A DNA stretch of 64,000 bases, from positions 2,294,001-2,358,000 of the forward strand of contig JALGAS010000001.1 of the NCBI GenBank assembly GCA_023078685.1, in the 5' to 3' direction. Below are positions 16,059 through 59,099 of the stretch, piece by piece. Every line of letters begins with the position of its first letter. Within the stretch, counting starts at the first letter, position 1. This DNA comes from Neopestalotiopsis rosae. Taxonomy: Eukaryota > Ascomycota > Sordariomycetes > Amphisphaeriales > Sporocadaceae. A program made the translations under genes and the position numbers. The notes beneath the pieces are model-generated. The model saw only the letters and a program-made list of their open reading frames with translations, had not been told where the DNA came from and ran no database searches.

Positions 16059-19000
16059 ATGTTTGAATACTTTGGCCTTGCCCAGGTAGTCGTGCTCGCC
16101 ATAGCAACAGTGGTCGCCTATCGATTATGTCGCGAGAAACTCGGCCGATCTCCGTTGTCTTCTTACTCTCAAGTGCAATCACTCCCCCAAGAGCGTGCTC
16201 CAGCTGATAATGCAACCACTGCCCCACAACATCCTCGAGCCGTTAGTGTGCGCCCAGTTGACCCAGATCAGAGCCAGGCGGATGCGGACATCGACATCAT
16301 CGCTATTCATGGCCTCGACACGAAATCACCTGATACGTGGACTTGGCGAGATCCAAAGGACCCAGAGAGTCTTGGTGTCAACTGGCTCGCCGATAAAAAT
16401 ATGCTTCCGAAAGCAGCCGGCAAAGCTCATATATTTACCTGCGATTGGCCCGCGGACCTATTTGAATCCTCCGAATTCGAGCCGAAGCAGATCGAAGAGC
16501 TTGCAAGACACTTGCTAGCGGGTCTGCAAAGGCGACACTCGAGCTCAACATTCAGAGAACGGGCGAAAGAGCGCCCGATTTTCTTTATCGCATCCTGTCT
16601 AGGCGGTTTAATTCTAACGAAGGCGCTTACAATGGCTAGCGGAGAGTACGAGTCTCTTCGGAAGGCGACACGCGGTATTGTCTTTCTCGCTACTCCGTTC
16701 GGAGGTACGTCTTTTGCAGACATCGCTAGTTGGGCCGAATCGTGCTTGAAGATCATGGGATTTGCCCAGGGGCGAAGACTCACCCAGCTTCTCTCGAACC
16801 TCAAGGATTCCACATTCGGTCTTGTTGAGCTAAGGAAAGACTTCACTGTTTGTTGCGAAAAGCTTGGGATCCAGAGAGAGGTCTTCACATTCTACGAAAA
16901 GGGCAAGACAAATCTCTTACGCGGAAGAGTCCCATGGATATCACAGCTCTTGAACAGAAGCGAGGTGGTAGGTGTTGCACGGCTCTCGTCTCGACTGCAC
17001 TCCTGGTGCATTACAGGTGAAATCAATAGCTAACACCGCTTAGTTGGTCAGTTACAGTTCAGCAACTCTGGCGTTCGTGGAGAATCCTCTATCGCTTGAC
17101 CGGCACCACGTCTTGATGAACAAGTTCAGTGGTCCAGACGACCCTGCTTACAAATGCGTTAGCAGTAAAATACAAGAGATCCTCTCTTCCATACGAAAAG
17201 GCACCCTGATCGTACGAGCAGATGCTGCGATCCGCAAATCTCGTTATTCGAAAGACAATCTCCGAATCGAAAGGCTCTCTGGGGAACTGCTACCAATGAA
17301 AGAGTGCTATATCAACCTAGCGATCATCAAGCAGTCCCAAGAGGATGGGAAACGTTCAAGAAAAGATACTGGGTCAGCTTTGACTCCGTTCTCTCTCACA
17401 TCTCGACTGGATATCGAACGGCCTGTGGAAGCGATGGATATTACACTTCCCACACTTTTTGACGAACGTCACATTGGAGATGGTGAGAGAATGCAGCCAC
17501 GCCGGATTTTAATCCGAGGACGCGCTGGAGTGGGGAAAACAACATTGTGCAAGAAAATTGTTCACGACTTTACCTATCCACAGGACTCTGCACGCGGCGG
17601 CATGTGGAGTGACATGTTCCATCGTATTCTCTGGATACCACTGAGGAAATTGAAACAGCAACGGGGCCAGAGAAACGGTTACGACTTTGGAAACCTCTTC
17701 CACGAGGTGGTTTTCGACCAGGATCACGAAAAAGATCGCCACGCCGAAGCGCTCTGGGACGAGGTTCTCGATACACATGGTGCTAAAACTCTGTTTCTAC
17801 TTGATGGATGGGATGAGGTGGTTTATGAACAAGATCACATGTCGGACTTCCTCAAGATCCTCCTCAATCAGCCGCATATCATCATCACGTCTCGGCCCCA
17901 CGCACGCCTTCCATATTATGCAAATACGATGGATCTTGAGCTTGAGACGATTGGATTCAATCCAACGCAAGTAGCAAGCTACTTGGAGATGTCTATGCCT
18001 TTTCAAGCGGACCAAGTTAAATCCTTTCTCAGTGAGCACCAACTAATGCAAGATCTCGTGCGAATCCCGATCCAACTAGACGCACTGTGTTACATTTGGG
18101 ACAGCGCTGCGAGCAGTCTTCAATCGACACCAGAAACCATGACCGCTGTTTACATGGCCATAGAGGAAAGGTTGTGGAGGAAAGATATTGAGAGGCTCGA
18201 GAAGGAGAACAAAACGCTGGCTCGTGATGCTCCTAGATTCGAGATTGATGAGGGAACGGAAGGTGAGCGGTCTTTCCTCGAAACACTTGCCTTTACCGGA
18301 TTGTATAACAATCTGGTCGATTTTGGCGAACAGAGCCGTTTCGCAGTATTCAAACGCTTCCGCGTGAAGGATGCTCAACTCTCACAACTCTCTTTTCTAC
18401 GCACATCAGACGCATCAATGACCTCTTCGGAAAGAGAATATCATTTTATACACCTGACATTCCAGGAGTACTTTGCAGCACGGCATTTCGTGCACCAGTG
18501 GAAAGATTCGCAACCTCTCATGTGTCTTGGACCCAAGGACGGAGACGATGAGTGCGAGAAAATTTGTCATGTCACCTTTCTTCAGAAGCATAAATATGAC
18601 AAAAGATACGATATTTTCTGGCGCTTTGTCGCTGGCTTGATTGGAGCAGAACACAGCACGCAAGTACTCTCCTTTTTCGGCATGATTGAAGCAGAGCCCC
18701 GCGATCTACTAGGCCCGGCACATCAACGGCTGGTCATGCACTGTTTGGCTGAGGTATCATCGCAAAGTCAACCCATGGATTTTGTGCACACTCGGAAGAC
18801 GTTGGAGAGCCGGTTGTCGCAGTGGTTGCTGTTTGAATGCAAATTTATGGGAGACTCACAACTGGCAGGCGAGTTGGATGTTCCAAAACCATCACTAGAG
18901 ACGGCCCTAGATCAGGCAGACGAGGCGACAAAGCAAATGCTTATACAATCACTGGAGTATCGATCTCGAATTCCTTCGTGCGTCATAGAGCTTGCTACCT

Positions 19001-21579
19001 CATGGCTAGCAGGATGTGACGCTGAATATCCCGTCCTAGATATTCTCGAGTTGCTGCAACAATCAGAAGAGCTCCTATCCAACGATCTGCTTGAAGCTGT
19101 AGCAGAACATCTCCATGAAGAGGACCGGAAAATCAGAGAGGTAGCACTCTTGATACTTCAAAATCAGTCAGGTCTTTCGAACAAGCTGCTCCGAGCAGTC
19201 GCTCAGAAGCTCGGGGACGAAAACGTTTTCGTCCGAATAGCTGCTATTGGCATACTCGAGAAACAGGCGAGCCTGTCTGGATCGGTGCTTGAAGTAGTCG
19301 TTGGAAAACTCGAGGACGAAGACCCTTCCGTCCGCAGAGATGCTATTGACATTCTCGCGAATCGGGCGTGCCAATCAGAGGCGGTAGTCGAAGCAGTTGT
19401 TCTGAAGCTAGGGCATAAGAAATGTTGCGTCCGAGAGGCTGCTATTGATATCCTCAGAGGCCAGACGAGCCCGTCCGAGTCGGTACTTGAAGCAATCATT
19501 GGGAAACTCGAGAACAAAAACGCTTCCGTCCGAAGAGCCGCTATTAGCATACTCGAGAAACAGGCGAGCCTGTCTGAGTCAGTGCTTGAAGCAATCGTTG
19601 GGAAACTCGAGGACGAAGACGCTTCCGTCCGAATAGCTGCCGTCAATGCCCTCGAGAAACAGGCGAACCTGTCTGAGTCAGTGCTTGAAGCAATCGTTGG
19701 GAAATTCGAGGACGAAGACGCTTCCGTCCGAAGAGCTGCTGTCAATGCCCTCGGGAAGCAGGCGAGCCTGTCTGAGTCAGTGCTTGAAGCAATCGTTGGG
19801 AAACTCGAGGACGAAGACGCTTCCGTCCGAATAGCTGCTGTCAATGCCCTCGAGAAACAGGCAAACCTGTCCGAGTCAGTGCTTGAAGCAATCGTTGGAA
19901 ACCTCGAGAACAAAAACGCTTCCGTCCGAAGAGCTGCTGTCAATACCCTCGGGCAACAGGCAAGCTTGTCCGAGTCGGTGCTTGAAGCAATCGTTGCGAA
20001 ATTTGAGGACGAAGACGCTTTCGTCCGAGGAGATGCTATTAACATATTGGAGAATCATGCGATACTGTCTGAGTCGGTGCTTGAAGCAATCGTCCAAAAG
20101 CTCGAGGACGAACACCATTGCGTCCGGTATGCTGCTGTTAATACCCTCAAGAAACAGGTGAGCTTGCCTGAGATAGTGGTTGAAGCGATCGTTCAAAAAC
20201 TCGAGCATGAAAATCTTCCCACTCGATCTTTTGCTATTAGCATACTCGAGAAACAGGCGAGCTTGTCTGAGTCGGCTCTTAAAGTAATTATTGGGAAACT
20301 CGAGCATGAGAAGTCTTTCGCTCAATACGTTGCTCTTGGTGTCCTCGCGAATCAGGTGAGCCTGTCCGAGCCAGGACTTCAAGCAATCATTGGAAAACTC
20401 GAGGACGAAGACGCTTCCGTCCGAAGAGCTGCTGTCAATGCCCTCGGGAAACAGGCAAGCTTGCCCGAGTCGGTGCTTAAAGCAATCGTTGGGAAACTCG
20501 AGGACGAAGACGCTTCCGTCCGAACAGCTGCTGTCAATGCCTTCGGGAAACAGGCAAGCCTGTCCGAGTCGGCGCTTAAAGCAATCATTGGAAAATTCGA
20601 GGACGAAGACGCTTTCGTCCGAAGAGATGCTATTAGCATACTCGAGAAACAGGCAAGCTTGTCCGAGTCAGTGCTTGAAGCAATCATTGGAAAACTCGAG
20701 AACAAAGACGCTTCCGTCCGAAGAGCTGCTGTCAATGCCCTCGGGAAGCAGGCGAGCCTGTCCGAGTCAGTGCTTGAAGCAATCGTTGGAAAACTCGAGA
20801 ACAAAAACGCTTCCGTCCGAAGAGATGCTATTAGCATACTCGAGAAACAGGCGAGCTTGTCTGAGTCGGTTCTTGAAGCAATTATTGGAAAACTCGAGAA
20901 CAAAGACGCTTCCGTCCGAATAGCTGCCGTCAATGCCCTCGAGAAACAGGCAAACCTGTCTGAGTCAGTGCTTGAAGCAATTATTGGAAAACTCGAGGAC
21001 GAAGACGCTTTCGTCCGAAGAGATGCTATTAGCATACTCGAGAAACAGGCAAGCTTGTCCGAGTCGGTGCTTGAAGCAATCATTGGAAAACTCGAGAACA
21101 AAGACCCTGCCGTCCGGAGGACTGCTGTCAATGCCCTTGGGAAACAGGTGAAACTACCCGAGACAGCGGTTAAAGCAGTCGTCCAGACACTCAAGGACAA
21201 AGACTCTTCCGTCCAACGGGCCGCTACCAATTTTGTTAGAAGACAGTTGAGCCTGCCTGAGACGGTGCTGCAAGCAGTATCAGATAATTTGAAGGAGGTA
21301 CTTTCTGATCTTGATGAGGAAACCCCCCCAGCATTGCTGTCTGTTCTCAAGAGCAGGCCGCATTTAATTCTTATTTCCCTCAAGAGTGGCACTTTTGAAG
21401 ATTTATTCCGCTTCCTTCTCCAACAAAGCTTCCACGATCACTTAGCCATATACCACAATGAAGGCAAACTTTGTCTTGACATTAATGGTGTTGTTGTACG
21501 TTGTACAGGCCATGTCCCTATGTTTGACGTCAATGGGGTTAGAAATGCTCTGTGTGTTCCAGTAGCAATAGGTCCATAA
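16059..21579 (+). CDS. NLR-type STAND protein: anchor, hydrolase, NACHT, HEAT-like repeats
   Basis: Exon 1 is 16059-16967, intron 16968-17043 (donor GTAGGT, branch CTAAC, acceptor TTAG), exon 2 17044-21579; 1814 residues. Residues about 5-23 form a hydrophobic anchor. Residues 76-330 resemble the SesB-like alpha/beta-hydrolase of fungal NLRs: HGLDTKSPDTW, an elbow reading IASCLGG (Cys180 where Ser is usual), LATPFGG, and SLDRHH with the candidate catalytic His. NACHT follows, with Walker A GRAGVGKTT (462-470) and Walker B LFLLDGWDEV (553-562). Residues 979-1704 are 22 HEAT-like units of 33, then a partial unit and a 100-residue cap. In this family the repeats sense a ligand, NACHT oligomerises and the N-terminal domain acts as effector, often in allorecognition or death; that role is inferred here. 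The gene is intact. Confidence 0.9.
19069..21246 (+). repeat. 22 tandem 99-bp units coding HEAT-like repeats
   Basis: The unit is 33 codons, consensus (A/S)-x-LSESVLEAI-(V/I)-GKLE followed by DEDASVRRAAVNALGKQ. Units 1-4 and 10-13 are diverged, while most others differ by few bases; the units at 19564 and 19762 differ at one base in 99. Variation is concentrated at repeat positions 2, 12, 15, 17-19, 21, 24, 25, 27, 28, 30 and 32, with few residues used at each. No stop or frameshift occurs in 2.2 kb. Confidence 0.95.
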
Positions 21580-22655: not shown

Positions 22656-23360
22656 AAACCAATCCCAGAGCTTTATCTCGTCGCTGAACGCATCGTGTTG
22701 GACGAAGACTCGTCAGTACGATCTTCTGCCGTTCGAGCTCTAGGCAACCAGTCCACCTTGGCAGAGACTACCATGACTGCTTCAGTGGCGCTTCTCAAGG
22801 ACGAGGACTCGTCAGTAAGATATTATGCCGCCAAAACTCTAGGCAAGCAGTCCAAGTTGTCAGAGACTACCATGACTGCTTTAGTAGCATTCCTCGAGAA
22901 CGAGGACTCGTCAGTAAGATATTATGCCGCCAAAACTCTAGGCAAGCAGTCCACATTGTCAGAGGCGACCATGACTGCTTTAGTGGTACTCCTCAAGGAC
23001 GAGAACTCGTCAGTACGATATCATGCCGCTGAAGCTCTAGGCGAGCAGCCGAACTTGATGGATAATATCTTAGAGGCCCTGGAGCTACCGCTCGAATCCA
23101 AAACACGACCTACCTTTCGCAATCCTCAATATATGGAGCATCTTTATGAAAGTTTGCTGTGGCGAAGTTTCCGCGAACAATTTAGTTTGTACAGCCGCGG
23201 AAACACTTGTATCACTAACCAAACGTCCGGTTTCCGTAAAGCCGATCTTGAAGACGGAAAGAAGTTCCAAGACGCAATTTCGGACGGACAACGTAAGCTA
23301 AGGGAGAACTTGGGCTACAATCCTTGGGTACCTCTCGAGGGAGAAGATTATGCTGATTAG
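22647..23360 (+). pseudogene. 3' relic of a second HEAT-repeat NLR-like gene
   Basis: The frame lacks an ATG before its first repeat. It holds a half unit, then three full 33-residue units at 22752, 22851 and 22950 (for example SKLSETTMTALVAFLENED and SSVRYYAAKTLGKQ), then a cap of about 100 residues ending at a TAG. The cap shares the pattern LxxLLxxSFxxxxxxY with the end of the NLR at 16059. No hydrolase or NACHT part lies upstream; instead there are repeat elements. Read as the surviving 3' end of a paralogue cut by rearrangement. A short expressed repeat protein is possible but no start is evident. Confidence 0.75.
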
Positions 23361-23870
23361 TCAGTCGCTACGTTCCGGGAAAGCACTAACGTCGTCTGGA
23401 AGGTAAATTCCACCGAACTGTAGTGAATTACTATTATACAGTACAAGTTCAAGCTGCTCACCCGCGCCCGGTGACAATTGGCCATGATTAGGAAATTCAG
23501 TTGGTTCGTTAATGAGCTTAAGAATCCGCAATGCAATTGGCTATTCATCATCTAAGCAAAAAGACTCAGGCGTTGTAAGGATTTATGCAAGATATTTGAC
23601 GAAAAATGATAGAACATCACAAAATACATTGGGACCCAGAAACCGAATTCCCTCTAGTAGTGATAAATGACTTGTGCGCATGTGGCTGGTGACGGCTTAA
23701 TCAAAGGTACACAGAAATTATAAAGATACAAGCTGTGGCGTTGGGCCTGGGACTCCAACGTCCCGTGTAGGTTACGGCGGAGCTAGGAAGCAGCAGGGTC
23801 CATTACCGGAAATGGCACTGCAAGGAGGGAAAATATATATATATGTATTTATATCTATCATTGTAGAAAC
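23361..23870. other. Intergenic
   Basis: No gene seen. It ends in an AT microsatellite (TATATATATATATG near 23832-23845) just upstream of the next promoter. Confidence 0.5.
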
Positions 23871-28179: not shown

Positions 28180-28380
28180 GCGGAAGAGAACTTTTGTTGT
28201 CTGTAGGACGGAAGAGTAGTCCAACACAGAAGAGTAGTCCAACACAGAAGAGTAGTCCAACACAGAAGAGTACTCCAACACAGAAGAGTAGTCCAACACA
28301 GAAGAGTACTCCAACACAGAAGAGTACCCCAGCACAGAAGAGTACTCCAATACAGAAGAGTATCCGGTAGTATTAGCGGG
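28180..28380 (-). repeat. Tandem array of 18-bp units within the dispersed element
   Basis: About nine units of AACACAGAAGAGTA(G/C)TCC run from 28206 to 28370, next to the inverted ACAACAAAAGTTC element core. The frame across it on the minus strand reads YSSVLE/D repeats, which is a by-product of the 18-bp period. Confidence 0.85.
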
Positions 28381-30965: not shown

Positions 30966-31991
30966 GTTGTGTGTTTGGGCACAGTGAGGACAGAAAGTGC
31001 AAAATATGTAACAAGCGAAGAAGCGTTACGTACTTTCAGCAATCATAGTACACGGCAACGGCGAGGATAGGGACAAGAAAAAAAGTCGAGGAGACAGCAG
31101 CCATGAACTATTATATATCAAGAGCATATTCCGTGTACCACCTGGTCGGCATATCAATTCAATCCATGCAATACGAGATCGGCACGGTGAAGACGATTGT
31201 CTACGAAATTGATTTCTGTATCCATTCAGTGCTTTCTGTAACTTGGACGGGAGTCGGACGCAGTATCCACACGGAACACTCCAAGTCATGTACAGTTCCA
31301 TGCTGCTCTAGGACAGATGACAACGGCGAAAGTAATGGGATGTGGTACACACGCGCAGCGGAGCTCGGTTGTAAGATCCACATCGACGGTTTTGAATCCT
31401 TGTTGGTCTTCTCTTTTACCACGGTACGGTAAAATAACTCCACAATGATCATTCGAAAATCCGGATCTAGGGCCTACAATATTTTTGGTCTGCGGGGGTT
31501 TGAGTCGCAACCTACGAATGAAGTCCGTATTTGAGGTTCCAGGGCGCGTCCCGCGTCATAGTGGATAGCTACTGTACCTGTGAATCGGCAGACGGTAGTT
31601 ATGTCCCAACACTTTGGCACACTAGAAGCAGAAATGCCAGGGGAGCTCCACGACATACATACAATTCCGTAATATAACCCCTGTTGTCTGCAACACAGAA
31701 GAGTATCGTAGAAGAGTATCCCAGCACAGAAGAGTATCCAAGACACAGAAGAGTATCCCAGCGTCTATAGAATATTGAGCACAGCCTCAAAGCTCAGAGC
31801 TTGGAACAAATGTGCTGCAGTATCTCTCTAGATCAAGACCTGTAAATCGACGACTGCGCTGGGCATTGAAGGCTCATCCGCTTTACGATACTTCCAAGAC
31901 AAGTGATCTAGGAAAAGAGGCACATGCACACGATCATGATGAGCTACGACAAATATCCTGGCAAGAGTCATATGCGTCAAATTGCAGCAGC
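30966..31991. other. Intergenic between the two MADS-like genes, first part
   Basis: No gene supported. Frames at 31026-31510 overlap on both strands. Repeat copies are at 31454-31497 and 31600-31770. Confidence 0.4.
31600..31770 (-). repeat. Dispersed CAGAAGAGTATCC element, inverted 3' part
   Basis: Contains AGGGGAGCTCCACGACATACATACAATTCCG and CCCTGTTGTCTGCAACACAGAAGAGTATC, the complement of the 3' part seen at 27415 and 57270, ending in three CAGAAGAGTATCC units. Confidence 0.65.
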
Positions 31992-39675: not shown

Positions 39676-39839
39676 GTTAGGTGGAACTTTTTGAGGAGAA
39701 TTGCATGGAGAATTCTATTTTGAGAATGCGAGAAGTGCCCGCTTATATATAAGCAATAGCGATACGACTAGTGCTAGCCTGAAGTCATTGCAAAGCTAAG
39801 ACCTATTATTTTACAGTACTCTTCAATGCTGCGCTACTG

Positions 39840-41020
39840 TTCTGTGATAGGATGCTGTTCTGTATGGGATGTGATGGGATACTCTTTTGTGTTGAAAGAC
39901 TCTTCTGTCTTACAGATAACAAGTGTTTTGTTCCGACGATTCCGGGATTGCGTGTACGTCATAGAGCTACCCTGATATTCCTGCCTTTAGCGTACCAAAC
40001 TACCGGGACATGAACATCGAAACGAGAAAATAACACAAGCGACAATGTTAGACTAAAGAATATCTACATGAATTGAGCTAAGCAATAGCCAATACGATAT
40101 GCTTCCGGTCATGGAGTAAGGTAAGTACAAACACGATCGTGCCTACGTCTTTGTTTGTTCCCAACACAGAAGAGTATCCTAACACAGAAGAGTATCTCGA
40201 CAACAACTACTCCACCTCCAACAGTCTAGAGCGGACATCCTTCCGAAATACGACGATTGAATAGAGCATAATGGTGATTTCAGAATGACACAATCTCGAC
40301 GTACTATAGTATTCTGTCCTGTTTATCTGGGCTACTCTTCTGTGGTGATATACACTTCTGTGGTAAGACACTCTTCTGTGTCTCTTCTGTGATGGATACT
40401 CTTCTGTGCCGTGGGTACCTTTCTGTAATGGAATACTGTTCTGTGCCAGGATACTGTTCTGTAATTGTGATGGCAGCTGTCCAGCTCCAAGTGTCTAATC
40501 GATATCATGCTCTTTCGTCCGCAGAGTGTACAATGCCTCTTCCTTTGAATCTGGACTGTAAATGTAGCAACAACCACAAGATCTTGATCTGGTCGATGCG
40601 GGTCTGATGGCCGTATTCGGCTGCGGAAAAATATGCATCGGTCCTTTCCAAGATTTTCTAAATTAAAAAGAGAAAAAGAAAAAGAAATCAAAAAGGTAGA
40701 AACGGATGTGAGAAATCGACACAGTAGCCGACGGGAGTATTTTCTGTCTTGGAATACTGTTCGGTATTAAGATACTGTCCTGTGCTAGGATACTGTTCTG
40801 TGTTAGGCTATTGTTTCGTGTTACGATACTCTTCTGTGCTGTAGACAACAAGGATTCTTTTCTGGAATTGTGGATATATCGTGGAGCTTCCCTGAGAATC
40901 CCACCTCCCGTGTCCCGAAATGTCGGGTCATGAGCATCGCAGTATTGTAAGAAAATAAAACAAGTGACGATGGTTGACGGATCTGAGTCTCCAGGACACT
41001 TCCAGTATTGACCTATGAAC
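39840..41020. repeat. Cluster of dispersed CAGAAGAGTATCC elements
   Basis: Three pieces: a 3' part in plus orientation (39840-40110), a 5' part in minus orientation with the unique core and GATAAACAGG junction (about 40140-40500), and another 3' part in plus orientation (40730-41020). The minus piece matches 58040-58470 closely including GTGATGGCAGCTGTCCA. No gene is present across the cluster. Confidence 0.7.
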
Positions 41021-46305: not shown

Positions 46306-48078
46306 TTATATCCAGCCCAGACTATTTTGGGAAAGTGCTGGCCGTGAGATGTTGGGAGTTTTATTAGAATCTTTCCATCGACTGCCCTTGTGAGTACGTT
46401 GGTTCGTCATCGAAGTATGTCCCTGGAATACAGCGAAAACGTTCCGGTGGATGGGCCCACGGCTACTTGCGGCAGGGTCGATTGCTCCCCGCATAGTCGA
46501 CGAGTCAGTGGCACGCAAGTTCGTGAGCGACCGTTTCTTCTTCAACCGGTAGCGTCGGGCAGCGACAATCGACAATCCACCACACGCACCTACAAGAGAC
46601 ACAGCAGCCATAACGATACCAACGGTCCTTCTTCTCTCTGCACTCGTTTGATTATTTGTCGTGTCTATGGTTGGCTCGCTCGTAGCTTCAACGGAGCCAG
46701 AAGTGGCTTTCGTGGATGTCACCAGGACCTGGGGGCTACTGTGGGACGAGCGGAAGCCCTGCGCTTGATCCACACTTGATGTATCAGTTTTCGTGTTTTC
46801 GGCACAGCATTCCGTCACTGCAGTGGAAGTTGTAGCATGCTCGGTCGAGATCCCTGTCCGCAGCATACCGCCAGTTACGAAGATACTGGACAGAGAAGCC
46901 GTGAGACTGTCTGTGGTCTCTGTCTCCCACAGCCCCCAACCGCCAAGATCTGCTACCGGAGTGATATTCGCGTCGGCAACATAATCGGTACCATCATTTT
47001 GCGTATGCTCTGGACTGAACGCTGAAAATGAAGGTTGCGCAACATCCATGAGCACAGTGCTCGCGCTAGTGACCGTATTGCTATATTGCAGTCCGAAACT
47101 TTTCATCATTGTTTTCGTTCCGGCATCAACTGTGCTTTTTGAAAACACATCATATGCAGAAGCGTCTTTGAATGGCGAAAATACAACAGTCTCGTGTGAA
47201 GCAGAAATGGCTGCGACTTCAGATAGGTCGGCAAGAAATGGTGAAAGAGCTCCAGTTGATGCATCAGTTTCTATGATTTGCAACGAGGTGGCGGACATCT
47301 TATTCGATGATTCAATGACGTATACCTCGCTCACAGACAAATTATTGAGTTGAGGTAGAATAGAGCTTGTTTCTCCCGTGCCTGAAACGGTCCCTTCTAC
47401 TGACGATTGTACATCCGATTGTTGTTTGAGAATTCCAGTCATTTGTACTCGCAGTGTCGAGGTTACGTCGTCCTGAACCACAACTGAGGATGTCGCAAAC
47501 AATGTTGGGACTGAAGGCGTTTCTCCCGTTAGCGTGGTTATGCCAAGAGTGCTGCTAGATGCTCTGAACGGCCTATCAGACACAATGAATGTGGAATCAG
47601 TTTTAACAGTTGCCAGGAAGGACCAATTATGATTTGTTGTAGTCGCTGAGGGCGCTGCGTGAGATAATCTTGCCATGCTCGAAGTTTGTATCTTAGTGCT
47701 AGTGCTACCTTTATCATCGGCAGAGCCGATATCGGATCGTGAAGTCCAAATGTCAGCGTTTGGCGGAGATGAAGTCCAGTTCCCGGGTTGAGTGCTTCCA
47801 AGGAGAGAAGAATATCGCGATGCAATTGTCATGTAGTTGTTTACAAAGTCGGCAGAGGACGAGTCAAGCGGGAAGGTTGCGATGCTGGATTCCCGGAAAG
47901 CTGTCGAACCTTCGTGGAAGAGTTCAAGTGGCTGAAGAGGCCTCCGCGTCGAGTTTGAATCGCCGCTGACTGGATTGCTAGGGAGGCCTGTGGTATTTGT
48001 AGGGACTCGATCAACACTACGTTCACAGAGAGCCTCATGTACCAGCAGTATCACGGCTACCATAGTCCGTTTTGCCAT
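46306..48078 (-). CDS. Mucin-like single-pass cell-surface protein, 590 aa
   Basis: I start at the ATG at 48078 because it opens a signal peptide (MAKRTMVAVILLVHEALC); the frame extends 25 codons further only to a TTG. A Ser/Thr-rich ectodomain of about 450 residues with many N-x-S/T sites is followed by one membrane span (TVGIVMAAVSLVGACGG to IVAA), an immediately basic stop-transfer stretch (RRYRLKKKRS) and a cytoplasmic tail of about 90 residues. This is the layout of fungal wall-stress sensors of the Wsc/Mid2 type, but no WSC domain or Cys cluster is present, so only the topology is supported. A role at the plasma membrane or wall is inferred. Confidence 0.75.
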   Translation of the reverse strand: MAKRTMVAVILLVHEALCERSVDRVPTNTTGLPSNPVSGDSNSTRRPLQPLELFHEGSTAFRESSIATFPLDSSSADFVNNYMTIASRYSSLLGSTQPGNWTSSPPNADIWTSRSDIGSADDKGSTSTKIQTSSMARLSHAAPSATTTNHNWSFLATVKTDSTFIVSDRPFRASSSTLGITTLTGETPSVPTLFATSSVVVQDDVTSTLRVQMTGILKQQSDVQSSVEGTVSGTGETSSILPQLNNLSVSEVYVIESSNKMSATSLQIIETDASTGALSPFLADLSEVAAISASHETVVFSPFKDASAYDVFSKSTVDAGTKTMMKSFGLQYSNTVTSASTVLMDVAQPSFSAFSPEHTQNDGTDYVADANITPVADLGGWGLWETETTDSLTASLSSIFVTGGMLRTGISTEHATTSTAVTECCAENTKTDTSSVDQAQGFRSSHSSPQVLVTSTKATSGSVEATSEPTIDTTNNQTSAERRRTVGIVMAAVSLVGACGGLSIVAARRYRLKKKRSLTNLRATDSSTMRGAIDPAASSRGPIHRNVFAVFQGHTSMTNQRTHKGSRWKDSNKTPNISRPALSQNSLGWI

Positions 48079-48928
48079 ATCGATGCTATACGGCGCTGAT
48101 AGGCACGATGTAGGCTTGCGCTGTAGAATCGCCGGGAGGTATGGAACGCTCAAACGAGCGCATTGAGGAATCGCTGAGCCGGTTCTAGGGATTTACTCGT
48201 AAGTTGCGTTTCTGGTGTATTTATTCCGTGATATGTGGTAACCGAGGGTCAAGAAATGGATCAATATTGTTTCTATGTACTACGTACGTATCCAAATGAA
48301 AGGCCCTAAAGTGCATGATTGAGTGTCAGGTACCATATTAGGTACTGTACCTGTATGATAGTGCTGGGCCACAACTTTTCGATCTCAGCAATCAGATTTG
48401 ACACATGATGAGCAAGTGTCCTAAAACGGATTTCACTGCCATTTCTGCCATTTTTGGCAGCTCTGAATATTGACTTAACGCAAGAATTCTGGGAGAATGA
48501 TCCATTGCGGATGTATTGAGATCTAAAAGTCGGGTTCTTTGGGGTTCGGCACGTTCGAGCATCTATATAGTGTATCATGTTCCTTGTCCAGACAGATCGC
48601 ACTGTTATACTTACATACAGTTGAAGAAAACGGCTTCCGCTTTTGCGGGGAAGAATTTACTTTCACAGCAGCCAATTTTGGAGCTTTAGGCTGACACAGT
48701 CCCAGCTGACATTTGTATGTGGGACTGTACGAATCAGGTACCTGATATGTACCATGGTTTTGCTTGTAGAATCAGACTCGAGATCCAAGAGGAGACAAAT
48801 AGATCCGCTTCAAATGATATGGTTCCCACGCGACAACCCAAGCTCCCTCGAAAGTCGAAACATTTATAAGTTGTACTCATCCACATGTTGGGGAGAAAGA
48901 TTACATGAAGATCAAAGCATTACACAGC
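48079..48928. other. Divergent intergenic region
   Basis: Promoters of the divergent genes at 48078 and 48929. Short frames on both strands have no support. GGTACCTGATATGTACCATGG near 48737 is partly palindromic. Confidence 0.4.
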
Positions 48929-57269: not shown

Positions 57270-58480
57270 AGTCCATAGACGCTGGGACACTCTTCTGTGT
57301 CTTGGATACCCTTCTGTGCTTCGGACAACAAGGGTTCTCTTTCGGAATTGTATGAATGTTGTGGAGCTCGCCTGAGTTTCGTGGTTTCGTGTACCAAACT
57401 GCCGGAACATGGCCATCGCAACGAGAAAGCAACACAAGCGACGATGATGCACGGATCCCGCACTTCGACGACAGTTCTAGCATTGGCTCAAGAAGCTCCA
57501 TTCATGTCACATGCTTTTTCGAACGAAGCAGAACAAGAGTATCCACCGCACAAAATGTATCATGCTCGTTAGAAGTCACTCGACTGGCCTTGAGCTCAAC
57601 TGTAGGCAATTCTGGTTCCGTTTCTCCATTGCATTACAGTGCTTGCAGTCATACTGTATGTTTTGAGGCTGTGCTCAATAGTCTATGAATGCTGAGATAC
57701 ACTTCCGTGGTGGGACATTCTTCTGTGGTGGGACACTCTTCTGTGGTGGGATACTTCTGTGTTGGGATACTTCTGTGTTGGGATACTTCTGTGTTGGGAT
57801 ACTTCTGTATTGGGATACTTCTGTGTTGGATATTCTTTTGAGCCTTGGATACTCTTCAGTGCTGGAATACCATTCTATGCTGCCATATTCTTCTGGGATA
57901 TTCTTTTGAAATACTCTTCTGTGGTGAGATACCATAGACGAGTCTGATTCTGGATCTCTATCCCAAACTCCCCACCACCCTCACTTTCTACGTAAGACCT
58001 CGAGCGTCTTGGCGAGTGCAAGTCATCTGATTTTGCCGTATGTACACACTTGCAGGTGGACAGCTGCCATCACAATTACAGAATAGTATCCTAGCACAGA
58101 ACAGTATCCTAGCACAGAACAGTATCCTAGAACAGAACAGTATCCTAGAACAGAACAGTATCCTAGAACAGAACAGTATCCCATTACAGAAAAGTAACCA
58201 CGGCACAGAAGACTATCCATCACAGAAGAGACACAGAAGAGTTTCCTACCACAGAAGTATATCCCACAACAGAAGTATATCCCACCACAGAAGTGTATCT
58301 CACCACAGAAGAGTAGCCCAGATAAACAGGACAGAAAACTACGTCGAAATTGTTCCATTCTGAAATGATCATGACGTTCTATTCAATCGTCGTATTTCGG
58401 AAGGATGTCCGCTCTAGGCTGTTGGAGGTGGAGTAGTTGTTGTCGAGATACACTTCTGTGTTGCATACTCTTCTGTGTTG
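57270..58480. repeat. Dispersed element cluster with long inverted simple-repeat arms
   Basis: A 3' part (57270-57480) is followed by an arm of 16-bp units GGGATACTTCTGTGTT (57690-57935), a spacer of about 145 bases, then an arm of 18-bp units CCTAGCACAGAACAGTAT (58078-58195) and further CAGAAG units to 58325 in the complementary sense, the GATAAACAGGACAG junction and the unique core (58340-58440). The motif TTTGAGGCTGTGCTCAATAGT at 57249 and 57661 marks element ends. Confidence 0.75.
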
Positions 58481-59099
58481 CATGTGGAACTTTGAAGATG
58501 ATAATTGTAAAGAGGCAACTTTGAATTGGAAGAAATAACAGGAGAGGTGTCATTTTGAGCATTAGAAGACGAAAGCGGCGTCCTGGAAATAATTGTGTAG
58601 GATGATGTTATTTTGTGTTCGTTCGAGCGGTTTCCGTACCTTGAATCGGAATCGGAGAGTGTTCACGAATATAAATATCCGTTAGTGTCTCAATCCATTT
58701 CTCTTCAACGACAACCCTGTATGATACTGTTAGTAAAAGTGACCAGCGTTCCTGCTTGGAGTTACTATAACTCCTCCAAGTGTTCAGAGTCCTATCCTCG
58801 GCGACTGAAGCGCGACCTGCTAGGTTGGTTAGTATACTTTGAAGATGTCTCCACTGTGGATCATTTATGTTTTCATCTTATTGTCTGTTACTCTCGCCGA
58901 TAGCTATAGTCGACCTGTCGCCGTAGCAAACTTGATCGTAGCTCGAACTGCCTCCAAGTTTGGTTTCCATTTTTCATCATCACGGTGCGTCTTTCCGCCC
59001 AGAAGAAACGAAACGCTTCCTCTCCTGTGTCGCGTACGGCTCATTTGATGCAGATTAATTCAACCTTCTTTTATGGTGTAAACGTGGTATACATCAACA
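58481..59099. other. Intergenic
   Basis: Nothing supported. Confidence 0.5.

What the first reader, a model, noticed from the sequence alone, without database searches (positions are those of the whole stretch)
16059..21579. Intact hydrolase-NACHT-HEAT NLR with highly homogeneous repeats
The sequence shows a membrane-anchored alpha/beta-hydrolase, a NACHT NTPase with Walker A and B, and 22 in-frame 33-residue HEAT-like repeats. Fungal NLRs with WD, ANK or TPR repeats that are recently homogenised are known allorecognition or immunity candidates; a HEAT-like sensor array this uniform joined to a SesB-like hydrolase is less familiar. The inference is that this is a non-self recognition gene with a fast-evolving specificity surface.
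Basis: partly seen in the sequence, partly recalled or inferred. Interest (0 to 1): 0.8.

Follow-up and report, generated by a model that had tools for sequence, protein, structure and literature searches.

The report
Fungal immune receptor with HEAT array
This is an intact fungal immune-receptor gene of a kind already described (a lipase-like domain, a NACHT switch and a row of similar HEAT repeats); its fresh feature is that the repeats vary most at positions that protein engineers also randomise to make artificial HEAT binders.

Summary
Exon 1 (16059-16967), a 76-bp intron and exon 2 (17044-21579) encode 1814 aa: hydrophobic N-terminal helix, hydrolase-like domain, NACHT, 22 in-phase 33-aa HEAT repeats, short cap. 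120 homologues align through the junction. The 'less familiar' reading does not hold: motif FIHLTFQEYFAA makes it an N-NACHT NLR, and sesB-like/N-NACHT/HEAT, with 3-12 repeats among Podospora strains, is in print. Its uniformity is ordinary: 33 of 58 homologues with at least 4 readable repeats average 60% identity or more; this array 57-61%. Two points I did not find in print: variation concentrates at unit positions 6, 7, 10, 14 (less at 11, 18), the positions randomised on the concave face of artificial alphaRep binders; and the effector has a Cys elbow, ASCLGG, where 9 of 10 same-genome relatives have HS[LM]GG. Most likely an autoinhibited sensor whose repeats bind a polymorphic ligand and cluster a membrane-tethered hydrolase-like effector. 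Allorecognition is untested: no conspecific isolates were found. A new member of a known kind.

The parts
16059..16967 (+). Exon 1: N-terminal hydrophobic helix and most of the hydrolase-like domain (aa 1-303)
16086..16130 (+). Hydrophobic core of the putative membrane anchor, VVVLAIATVVAYRLC
   Evidence: hydropathy; coordinates
16590..16607 (+). Nucleophile-elbow position A-S-C-L-G-G; Cys180 at 16596-16598 stands where HS[LM]GG relatives have Ser
16968..17043 (+). 76-bp intron, GT...CTAAC...AG
17044..21579 (+). Exon 2: end of the hydrolase-like domain with invariant His325 (17107-17109), NACHT, HEAT array, cap, stop codon
17500..17988 (+). NACHT NTPase core; Walker A 17518-17544, Walker B 17791-17820
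18445..18480 (+). HETHS motif FIHLTFQEYFAA, diagnostic of NAIP-like N-NACHT
19111..21288 (+). 22 in-phase 33-aa HEAT repeats; most variable unit positions 10, 6, 17, 7, 14, then 15 and 11
21289..21576 (+). C-terminal cap after the array, containing FEDLFRFLLQQSF
22700..23447 (+). Separate 3' relic of a different N-NACHT/HEAT gene (about 4 HEAT repeats plus tail and some 3' flank), 83.9% identical in DNA to the 3' end of paralogue B at C1:2208 kb; not part of this gene

Best explanation
An intact sesB-like/N-NACHT/HEAT NLR of a filamentous ascomycete. Inferred mechanism: the N-terminal helix tethers the protein to a membrane; at rest the NACHT domain holds ADP and the receptor is inactive; the HEAT superhelix binds a polymorphic protein ligand (non-self or altered self) on its concave face; ADP/ATP exchange then drives oligomerisation, which brings the Cys-elbow hydrolase-like domains together so that they attack a membrane lipid or acyl-protein and start regulated cell death or defence. 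Specificity changes through unequal exchange or conversion among similar repeats plus diversification at a few positions per unit, above all 6, 7, 10 and 14. Shown here: gene structure, domain family, within-gene homogenisation, concentration of variation on the alphaRep-equivalent face. Inferred: membrane tether, catalysis, ligand, oligomerisation, cell death.
For: HETHS motif in 116 of 120 listed homologues, matching the published N-NACHT consensus. NLRP3 chains match exon-2 residues 76-539, NACHT and beyond (E 2.3e-8; profile E 3.6e-16). The model of homologue P0001 ranks ADP-bound NOD2, NLRP3 and NLRC4 first by Foldseek E-value, though at low TM-score (0.16-0.31 by query length). sesB-like/NACHT/HEAT with repeat-number polymorphism is published. 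pN/pS at unit positions 6, 7, 10, 11, 14, 18 is 1.34, 1.31 and 1.37 against 0.50, 0.45 and 0.63 elsewhere in the three arrays of this genome. Entropy at the six exceeds the rest in 25 of 25 homogenised homologue arrays, by Mann-Whitney p<0.01 in 18 of 25. The six correspond to alphaRep positions 18, 19, 22, 23, 26, 30, on the concave binding face.
Against: Lower bootstrap bounds of pN/pS at the six positions are 0.87, 0.99 and 0.88, so positive selection is not proven in any one array, and repeats are not independent. Two of the six are not regularly hypervariable: in the 25 homologue arrays position 11 is among the top eight in 5 and position 18 in 9. In the window gene positions 15 and 17, outside the six, vary as much. 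No isolates, expression data or ligand. The hydrolase-like domain has Cys in place of Ser and lacks the Asp306 seen in 84 of 120 homologues, so activity is uncertain, and no Pfam hydrolase match reaches its cut-off. The array model is single-sequence, mean pLDDT 76, and no coordinates were available to me, so the face is assigned by alignment to alphaRep.
Confidence: 0.75

Rival explanations
1. Neutral concerted evolution: the repeats are homogenised by unequal exchange and the variable positions vary only because they are solvent-exposed and tolerant.
For: pN/pS at the six positions is not significantly above 1 in any single array; exposed surfaces tolerate change (general knowledge).
Against: Helix-B positions 24, 25, 28, 29, 32, 33, which I take as exposed without a structure to prove it, stay more conserved: pN 0.153 against 0.355 in the window gene, 0.099 against 0.231 in A, 0.123 against 0.373 in B. 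In homologues the six exceed helix-B positions 24, 25, 28, 29, 32 in 24 of 25 homogenised and 15 of 16 divergent arrays.
Confidence: 0.25
2. Pathogen or endobacterial surveillance receptor, or a guard of a host protein, rather than an allorecognition (heterokaryon incompatibility) gene.
For: The guard hypothesis is discussed for fungal NLRs (PMC12881547, passages). Several sibling genes with distinct arrays sit in one genome.
Against: Nothing here separates it from allorecognition; published repeat polymorphism in the Podospora HEAT NLR fits both.
Confidence: 0.5
3. The N-terminal domain is a pseudoenzyme and acts as membrane tether or scaffold only.
For: Cys at the elbow and Ser instead of Asp306 in this gene; two metagenomic relatives carry ASSLGG, so Cys is not absolute.
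Against: The Cys180 and His325 columns are each 120 of 120 in listed homologues, more conserved than a dead site needs; dienelactone hydrolase is a Cys-nucleophile alpha/beta hydrolase (recalled, no call).
Confidence: 0.25
4. Gene-model artefact: exon 1 and exon 2 are separate genes or a pseudogene.
For: No transcript evidence is available here.
Against: 120 homologues align through the junction, though their own gene models are predictions; three paralogues show the same split; consensus donor, branch motif and acceptor.
Confidence: 0.03

Closest known systems
Fungal N-NACHT/HEAT NLRs with sesB-like N-terminus (Sordariales survey, PMC12258605; passages read)
   Same: HETHS FLHLT[FY]QEYFAA-type motif, HEAT C-terminus, sesB-like N-terminus
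   Different: This gene is from a fungus whose nearest named mannosyltransferase relatives are Pestalotiopsis and Neopestalotiopsis (81% identity), outside Sordariales (placement recalled). Whether the published sesB-like members share the Cys elbow I did not see in the passages read.
Podospora anserina Pa_6_7270 (sesB-like/NACHT/TPR(HEAT), PMC4986451, section 17 read)
   Same: Same architecture; highly conserved repeats; 10, 3, 6, 12 and 10 repeats in five strains, a sixth not determined
   Different: Here 22 repeats; I did not compare the sequence with Pa_6_7270
Homologue P0001, Pyricularia pennisetigena
   Same: 53% identity over the first 1000 aa, same elbow, N-terminal helix, NACHT, HEAT
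   Different: 1155 aa, only 4 near-full repeats scored
alphaRep artificial HEAT binders (PDB 4zv6, 3ltj; PMC3754942, passages read)
   Same: Four units of the array match 4zv6 (E 6e-39); same variable face
   Different: Engineered unit two residues shorter, no NACHT or effector; resemblance in working surface, not family membership
Mammalian NLRP3/NOD2/NLRC4
   Same: NACHT-region sequence similarity and best-ranked fold matches
   Different: Their sensor is LRR, not HEAT, and they have no hydrolase (recalled)
SERAC1/SesB Ser-type alpha/beta hydrolases
   Same: Sequence homology to same-genome relatives with an HS[LM]GG elbow (E from 2e-11); TPxxG and His motifs
   Different: Cys in place of the elbow Ser; the relatives were assigned by motif, not by a named family match

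Membership tests
Fungal N-NACHT NLR | NAIP-like HETHS motif FhHxxhQE[YF]hxA | tested here: met
   FIHLTFQEYFAA at aa 771-782; consensus from PMC12258605
Fungal N-NACHT NLR | P-loop NTPase with Walker A and B | tested here: met
Fungal N-NACHT NLR | C-terminal HEAT repeats | tested here: met
   HEAT_2 E 1.8e-62; helix pairs in the model
Fungal N-NACHT NLR | sesB-like N-terminal domain | tested here: inconclusive
   No Pfam model reaches cut-off; homologous to Ser-elbow relatives of the same genome; the published in-house sesB profile was not available
High-internal-conservation NLR (Dyrka 2014) | Repeats over 85% identical over at least 100 aa | tested here: inconclusive
   Many unit pairs are 86-98% identical in DNA, but the array mean is 57-61% aa and the published procedure was not reproduced
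High-internal-conservation NLR (Dyrka 2014) | Repeat-number polymorphism among isolates | not testable with these tools
   No conspecific found: best homologue 53%, nearest relative of one flanking gene 81%
SesB/SERAC1 serine hydrolase | Ser nucleophile in the elbow | tested here: not met
   ASCLGG; Cys in 120 of 120 aligned homologues; Ser in 9 of 10 same-genome relatives with a readable elbow, one GHCFGG, 3 of 13 unreadable
Heterokaryon incompatibility (het) gene | Allelic difference causes incompatibility | not testable with these tools
   needs crosses or isolates

The most novel reading that the evidence does not exclude
N-NACHT/HEAT NLRs are a natural counterpart of the alphaRep binder library: a fixed HEAT scaffold kept uniform by recombination, with four to six concave-face residues per unit diversified as a combinatorial binding surface, wired to a Cys-nucleophile hydrolase that forms a distinct effector subclass of the SesB-like family.
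Probability: 0.5. Interest if true: 0.6.

Novelty: new member of a known kind. Interest (0 to 1): 0.42.

Why it matters
The site-level selection mapping for fungal NLR repeats in the text I read covers one ANK and one TPR locus, and refers to earlier work on WD repeats; in Dyrka 2014 the HEAT locus is only a repeat-number column. A short list of candidate specificity residues per HEAT unit makes ligand recognition by this class directly testable, because alphaRep structures already show how that surface binds proteins. The Cys elbow predicts a different chemistry, or none, for an effector domain usually called a lipase.

Tried and rejected
Novel architecture: rejected after reading passages of PMC4986451, PMC12258605 and PMC3321046 and one section of the first. 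Exceptional uniformity: rejected, since 33 of the 58 homologues with at least 4 near-full repeats average 60% or more (the other 62 of 120 had fewer such repeats and were dropped), and the two nearby paralogue arrays are more uniform (74% and 70% aa against 61%). My first guess that variation lay on a convex side was dropped after the alphaRep alignment put the same positions on the concave face. RIP decay of the 22.7-kb relic: rejected; its indices (1.03, 1.0) are close to those of the intact paralogue B 3' end (1.03, 1.03). Rank correlation with the homologue mean failed because position 33 had no data; I then compared the six positions with the rest instead. Entropy profiles within the genome correlate only moderately: SELF-B 0.46, A-B 0.47, SELF-A 0.33 with p 0.06. 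Array A fits the six positions least: 27, 30 and 31 also vary, 10 and 18 little; random-column p 0.02 for A against 0.001 and 0.0005 for the window gene and B. PDB sequence and profile searches with the hydrolase-like domain found no hydrolase, nor did NCBIfam. Foldseek with the array model gave mostly generic HEAT solenoids at TM-score 0.40 or less by query length. Repeat-number contrast between similar homologues is suggestive only. For: Neurospora tetraspora P0084/P0098, core 96.4%, 4 against 8 repeat hits, while four Trichoderma proteins with divergent arrays (P0049, P0063, P0068, P0076) all have 1396 aa. Against: P0025/P0048 with uniform arrays have 9 hits each, and Trichoderma P0100/P0109 (97.1% core, low-identity arrays) differ by 198 aa. 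Pairs may be paralogues. The elbow scan by motif gave ASCLGG 115, ASCIGG 2, GHSLGG 1 and none 2 of 120; the odd ones are a long protein with an extra GHSLGG, one with CFGG and one with ASCLGG beyond residue 450, consistent with the aligned column being Cys in 120 of 120. Literature searches for the alphaRep link, HEAT-NLR selection and a Cys SesB showed nothing on them, judged from titles, abstract starts and the passages read; the library lacks most subscription papers, and the multi-term searches were coarse.
Full report
What is there. The window lies at C1:2294001-2358000 of a 53.77-Mb, 17-contig genome with at least 87 NACHT matches. A mannosyltransferase in the same window is closest to Pestalotiopsis fici and Neopestalotiopsis (81% identity over 83% of the query), which suggests Xylariales (placement from memory); with that one gene and the NLR itself (best homologue 53%) no conspecific protein was found. 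Exon 1 (16059-16967) and exon 2 (17044-21579) join over a 76-bp intron with consensus ends and a CTAAC branch motif into 1814 aa. The joint is supported because the 120 listed homologues (of 841 found) align straight through it and because paralogues L010, L011 and L012 carry the same split in two frames. The conserved His325 lies just downstream of the intron, so an unspliced product would lack it.

Domains. The first 19-23 residues are hydrophobic (mean 1.93; 38 of 58 homologues judged to have a complete N-terminus have a comparable segment). The following domain matches no Pfam hydrolase above cut-off (among 19 relatives Abhydrolase_6 appears weakly in 5, best E 0.0023). It is nevertheless homologous to other genes of this genome found with exon 1 alone (19 matches including itself and three paralogues). 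I fetched 13 of the 15 others. Ten showed a readable elbow: 9 have HS[LM]GG, three of them near-identical copies, and one GHCFGG. The window gene has ASCLGG. In the alignment to 120 homologues Cys180 and His325 are each 120 of 120. In a second, hydrolase-length search (277 found, 120 listed) 117 have ASCLGG, 2 ASSLGG, 1 no readable elbow. The acid of a triad is unclear: Asp306 is present in 84 of 120, Asn in 22, and Ser here. NACHT is at aa 456-618, and NLRP3 chains match exon-2 residues 76-539. FIHLTFQEYFAA (aa 771-782) is the N-NACHT signature. The AF2 model of homologue P0001 (mean pLDDT 75) ranks ADP-bound NOD2, NLRP3 and NLRC4 first, at low TM-score.

Array. Twenty-two 99-bp units (19111-21288) run in phase, helix A at unit positions 6-17 and helix B from 24. 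Mean pairwise identity is 72% DNA and 57% protein over 22 units, 61% protein over units 2-21; the best pair reaches 98% DNA. A short cap follows. A motif that I wrote after looking at such tails occurs near the end of 42 of 120 listed homologues against 2 of 2400 shuffled tails; similar tails are visible in paralogues A to E (by eye).

Where the repeats vary. Two paralogues 90-100 kb away carry their own uniform arrays with different repeat sequences: A, 23 units used, 74% aa, and B, 18 used, 70% aa. So homogenisation acts within each gene. Variation is not spread evenly. In the window gene the most variable columns are 10, 6, 17, 7 and 14, then 15 and 11. Of 120 listed homologues 41 have at least 6 near-full units, scored with a profile built from this gene's own repeats; 25 of them average 60% identity or more. 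In these 25, position 14 is among the eight most variable in 24, positions 6 and 10 in 23, 7 in 22, 5 in 16, 18 in 9, 11 in 5. Alignment to the artificial HEAT protein alphaRep-7 (4zv6) shows, over six of its printed units, variable columns at unit positions 6, 7, 10, 11, 14 and 18, with the spacing of the published randomised positions 18, 19, 22, 23, 26 and 30, which lie on the concave face (PMC3754942, passages). At these six columns pN/pS is 1.34, 1.31 and 1.37 in the window gene, A and B, and 0.50, 0.45 and 0.63 elsewhere. Bootstrap intervals at the six include 1 (0.87-1.89, 0.99-1.72, 0.88-2.02) and do not reach it elsewhere. Mean entropy at the six exceeds the rest in 25 of 25 homogenised and 16 of 16 less uniform homologue arrays, median ratio 3.3 and 1.9; by Mann-Whitney p<0.01 in 18 of the 25. 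The firm core is therefore 6, 7, 10 and 14; 11 and 18 are weaker. alphaRep side chains were themselves modelled on natural repeats, so the match marks the general HEAT binding face and is not an independent coincidence.

How it probably works. By analogy with animal NLRs and with PLP-1 and NWD2 (PMC12881547, passages), ligand binding by the array would release the NACHT domain, cause oligomerisation and cluster the N-terminal effector at a membrane. Whether the effector is a Cys-dependent hydrolase or a degenerate one is open.

What is known. Dyrka 2014 lists Pa_6_7270 as sesB-like/NACHT/TPR(HEAT) with 10, 3, 6, 12 and 10 repeats in five strains; sites under positive selection were tested for one ANK and one TPR locus, and variable sites were mapped in two further proteins. 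The Sordariales survey reports 70 N-NACHT NLRs among 4613, sesB-like as their only canonical N-terminal domain (53 genes), and N-NACHT exclusively with HEAT in fungi (passages). PMC12222747 notes highly conserved HEAT arrays (passages). The gene is therefore a new member of a known kind. I did not find the position pattern or the Cys elbow in what searches listed, nor in the passages read (included); I read no supplements.

Neighbourhood. At 22700-23447 lies a truncated 3' piece of a second N-NACHT/HEAT gene, 83.9% identical to the 3' end of paralogue B including about 87 bp beyond its stop. In this genome the N-NACHT/HEAT core is joined to two kinds of hydrolase-like domain: the Cys type (window gene, A, C, D) and a Ser type (B with GHSFGG, E with SHSFGG; exon structures of B and E not resolved).

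Noticed in passing
window 22700-23447: 3' relic of a different N-NACHT/HEAT gene (about four 33-aa HEAT units plus tail), 83.9% DNA identity to paralogue B at C1:2208 kb.
   Followed up: partly
window 28211-28362, 31710-31762, 39837-40838, 57701-58483; genome C1:1.49-2.77 Mb and C17:1.56-3.04 Mb: Dispersed 18-bp minisatellite (AGAAGAGTATCCCANCAC and variants). The 25 exact genome matches lie in these two stretches, 9 on C1 and 16 on C17, none on the other 15 contigs. The C1 stretch, extended to the NACHT match at 2.82 Mb, holds 8 of 87 NACHT matches against about 2.2 expected (p 0.0015, region chosen after seeing the data): possibly a fast-evolving compartment.
   Followed up: partly
G000 C1:2208-2220 kb (L010, L013, L015, L019): Neighbouring pair of N-NACHT/HEAT genes with long uniform arrays of two different repeat sequences; one has a Cys-type and one a Ser-type elbow.
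   Followed up: yes
G000 C1:2673-2677 kb (L011): Related gene with stops inside the matched stretches and few HEAT units; possibly a pseudogene or unresolved introns.
   Followed up: no
L028 (C11:5741800-5743100): A more distant relative of the exon-1 domain with GHCFGG, another Cys at the elbow.
   Followed up: no
P0084 and P0098: Two Neurospora tetraspora proteins with 96.4% identical cores but 4 and 8 repeat hits.
   Followed up: no
window 46306-48192 (-): 628-aa stop-to-stop frame, Ser/Thr-rich with a transmembrane-like stretch near its C-terminal part, no Pfam match at E 0.001.
   Followed up: no
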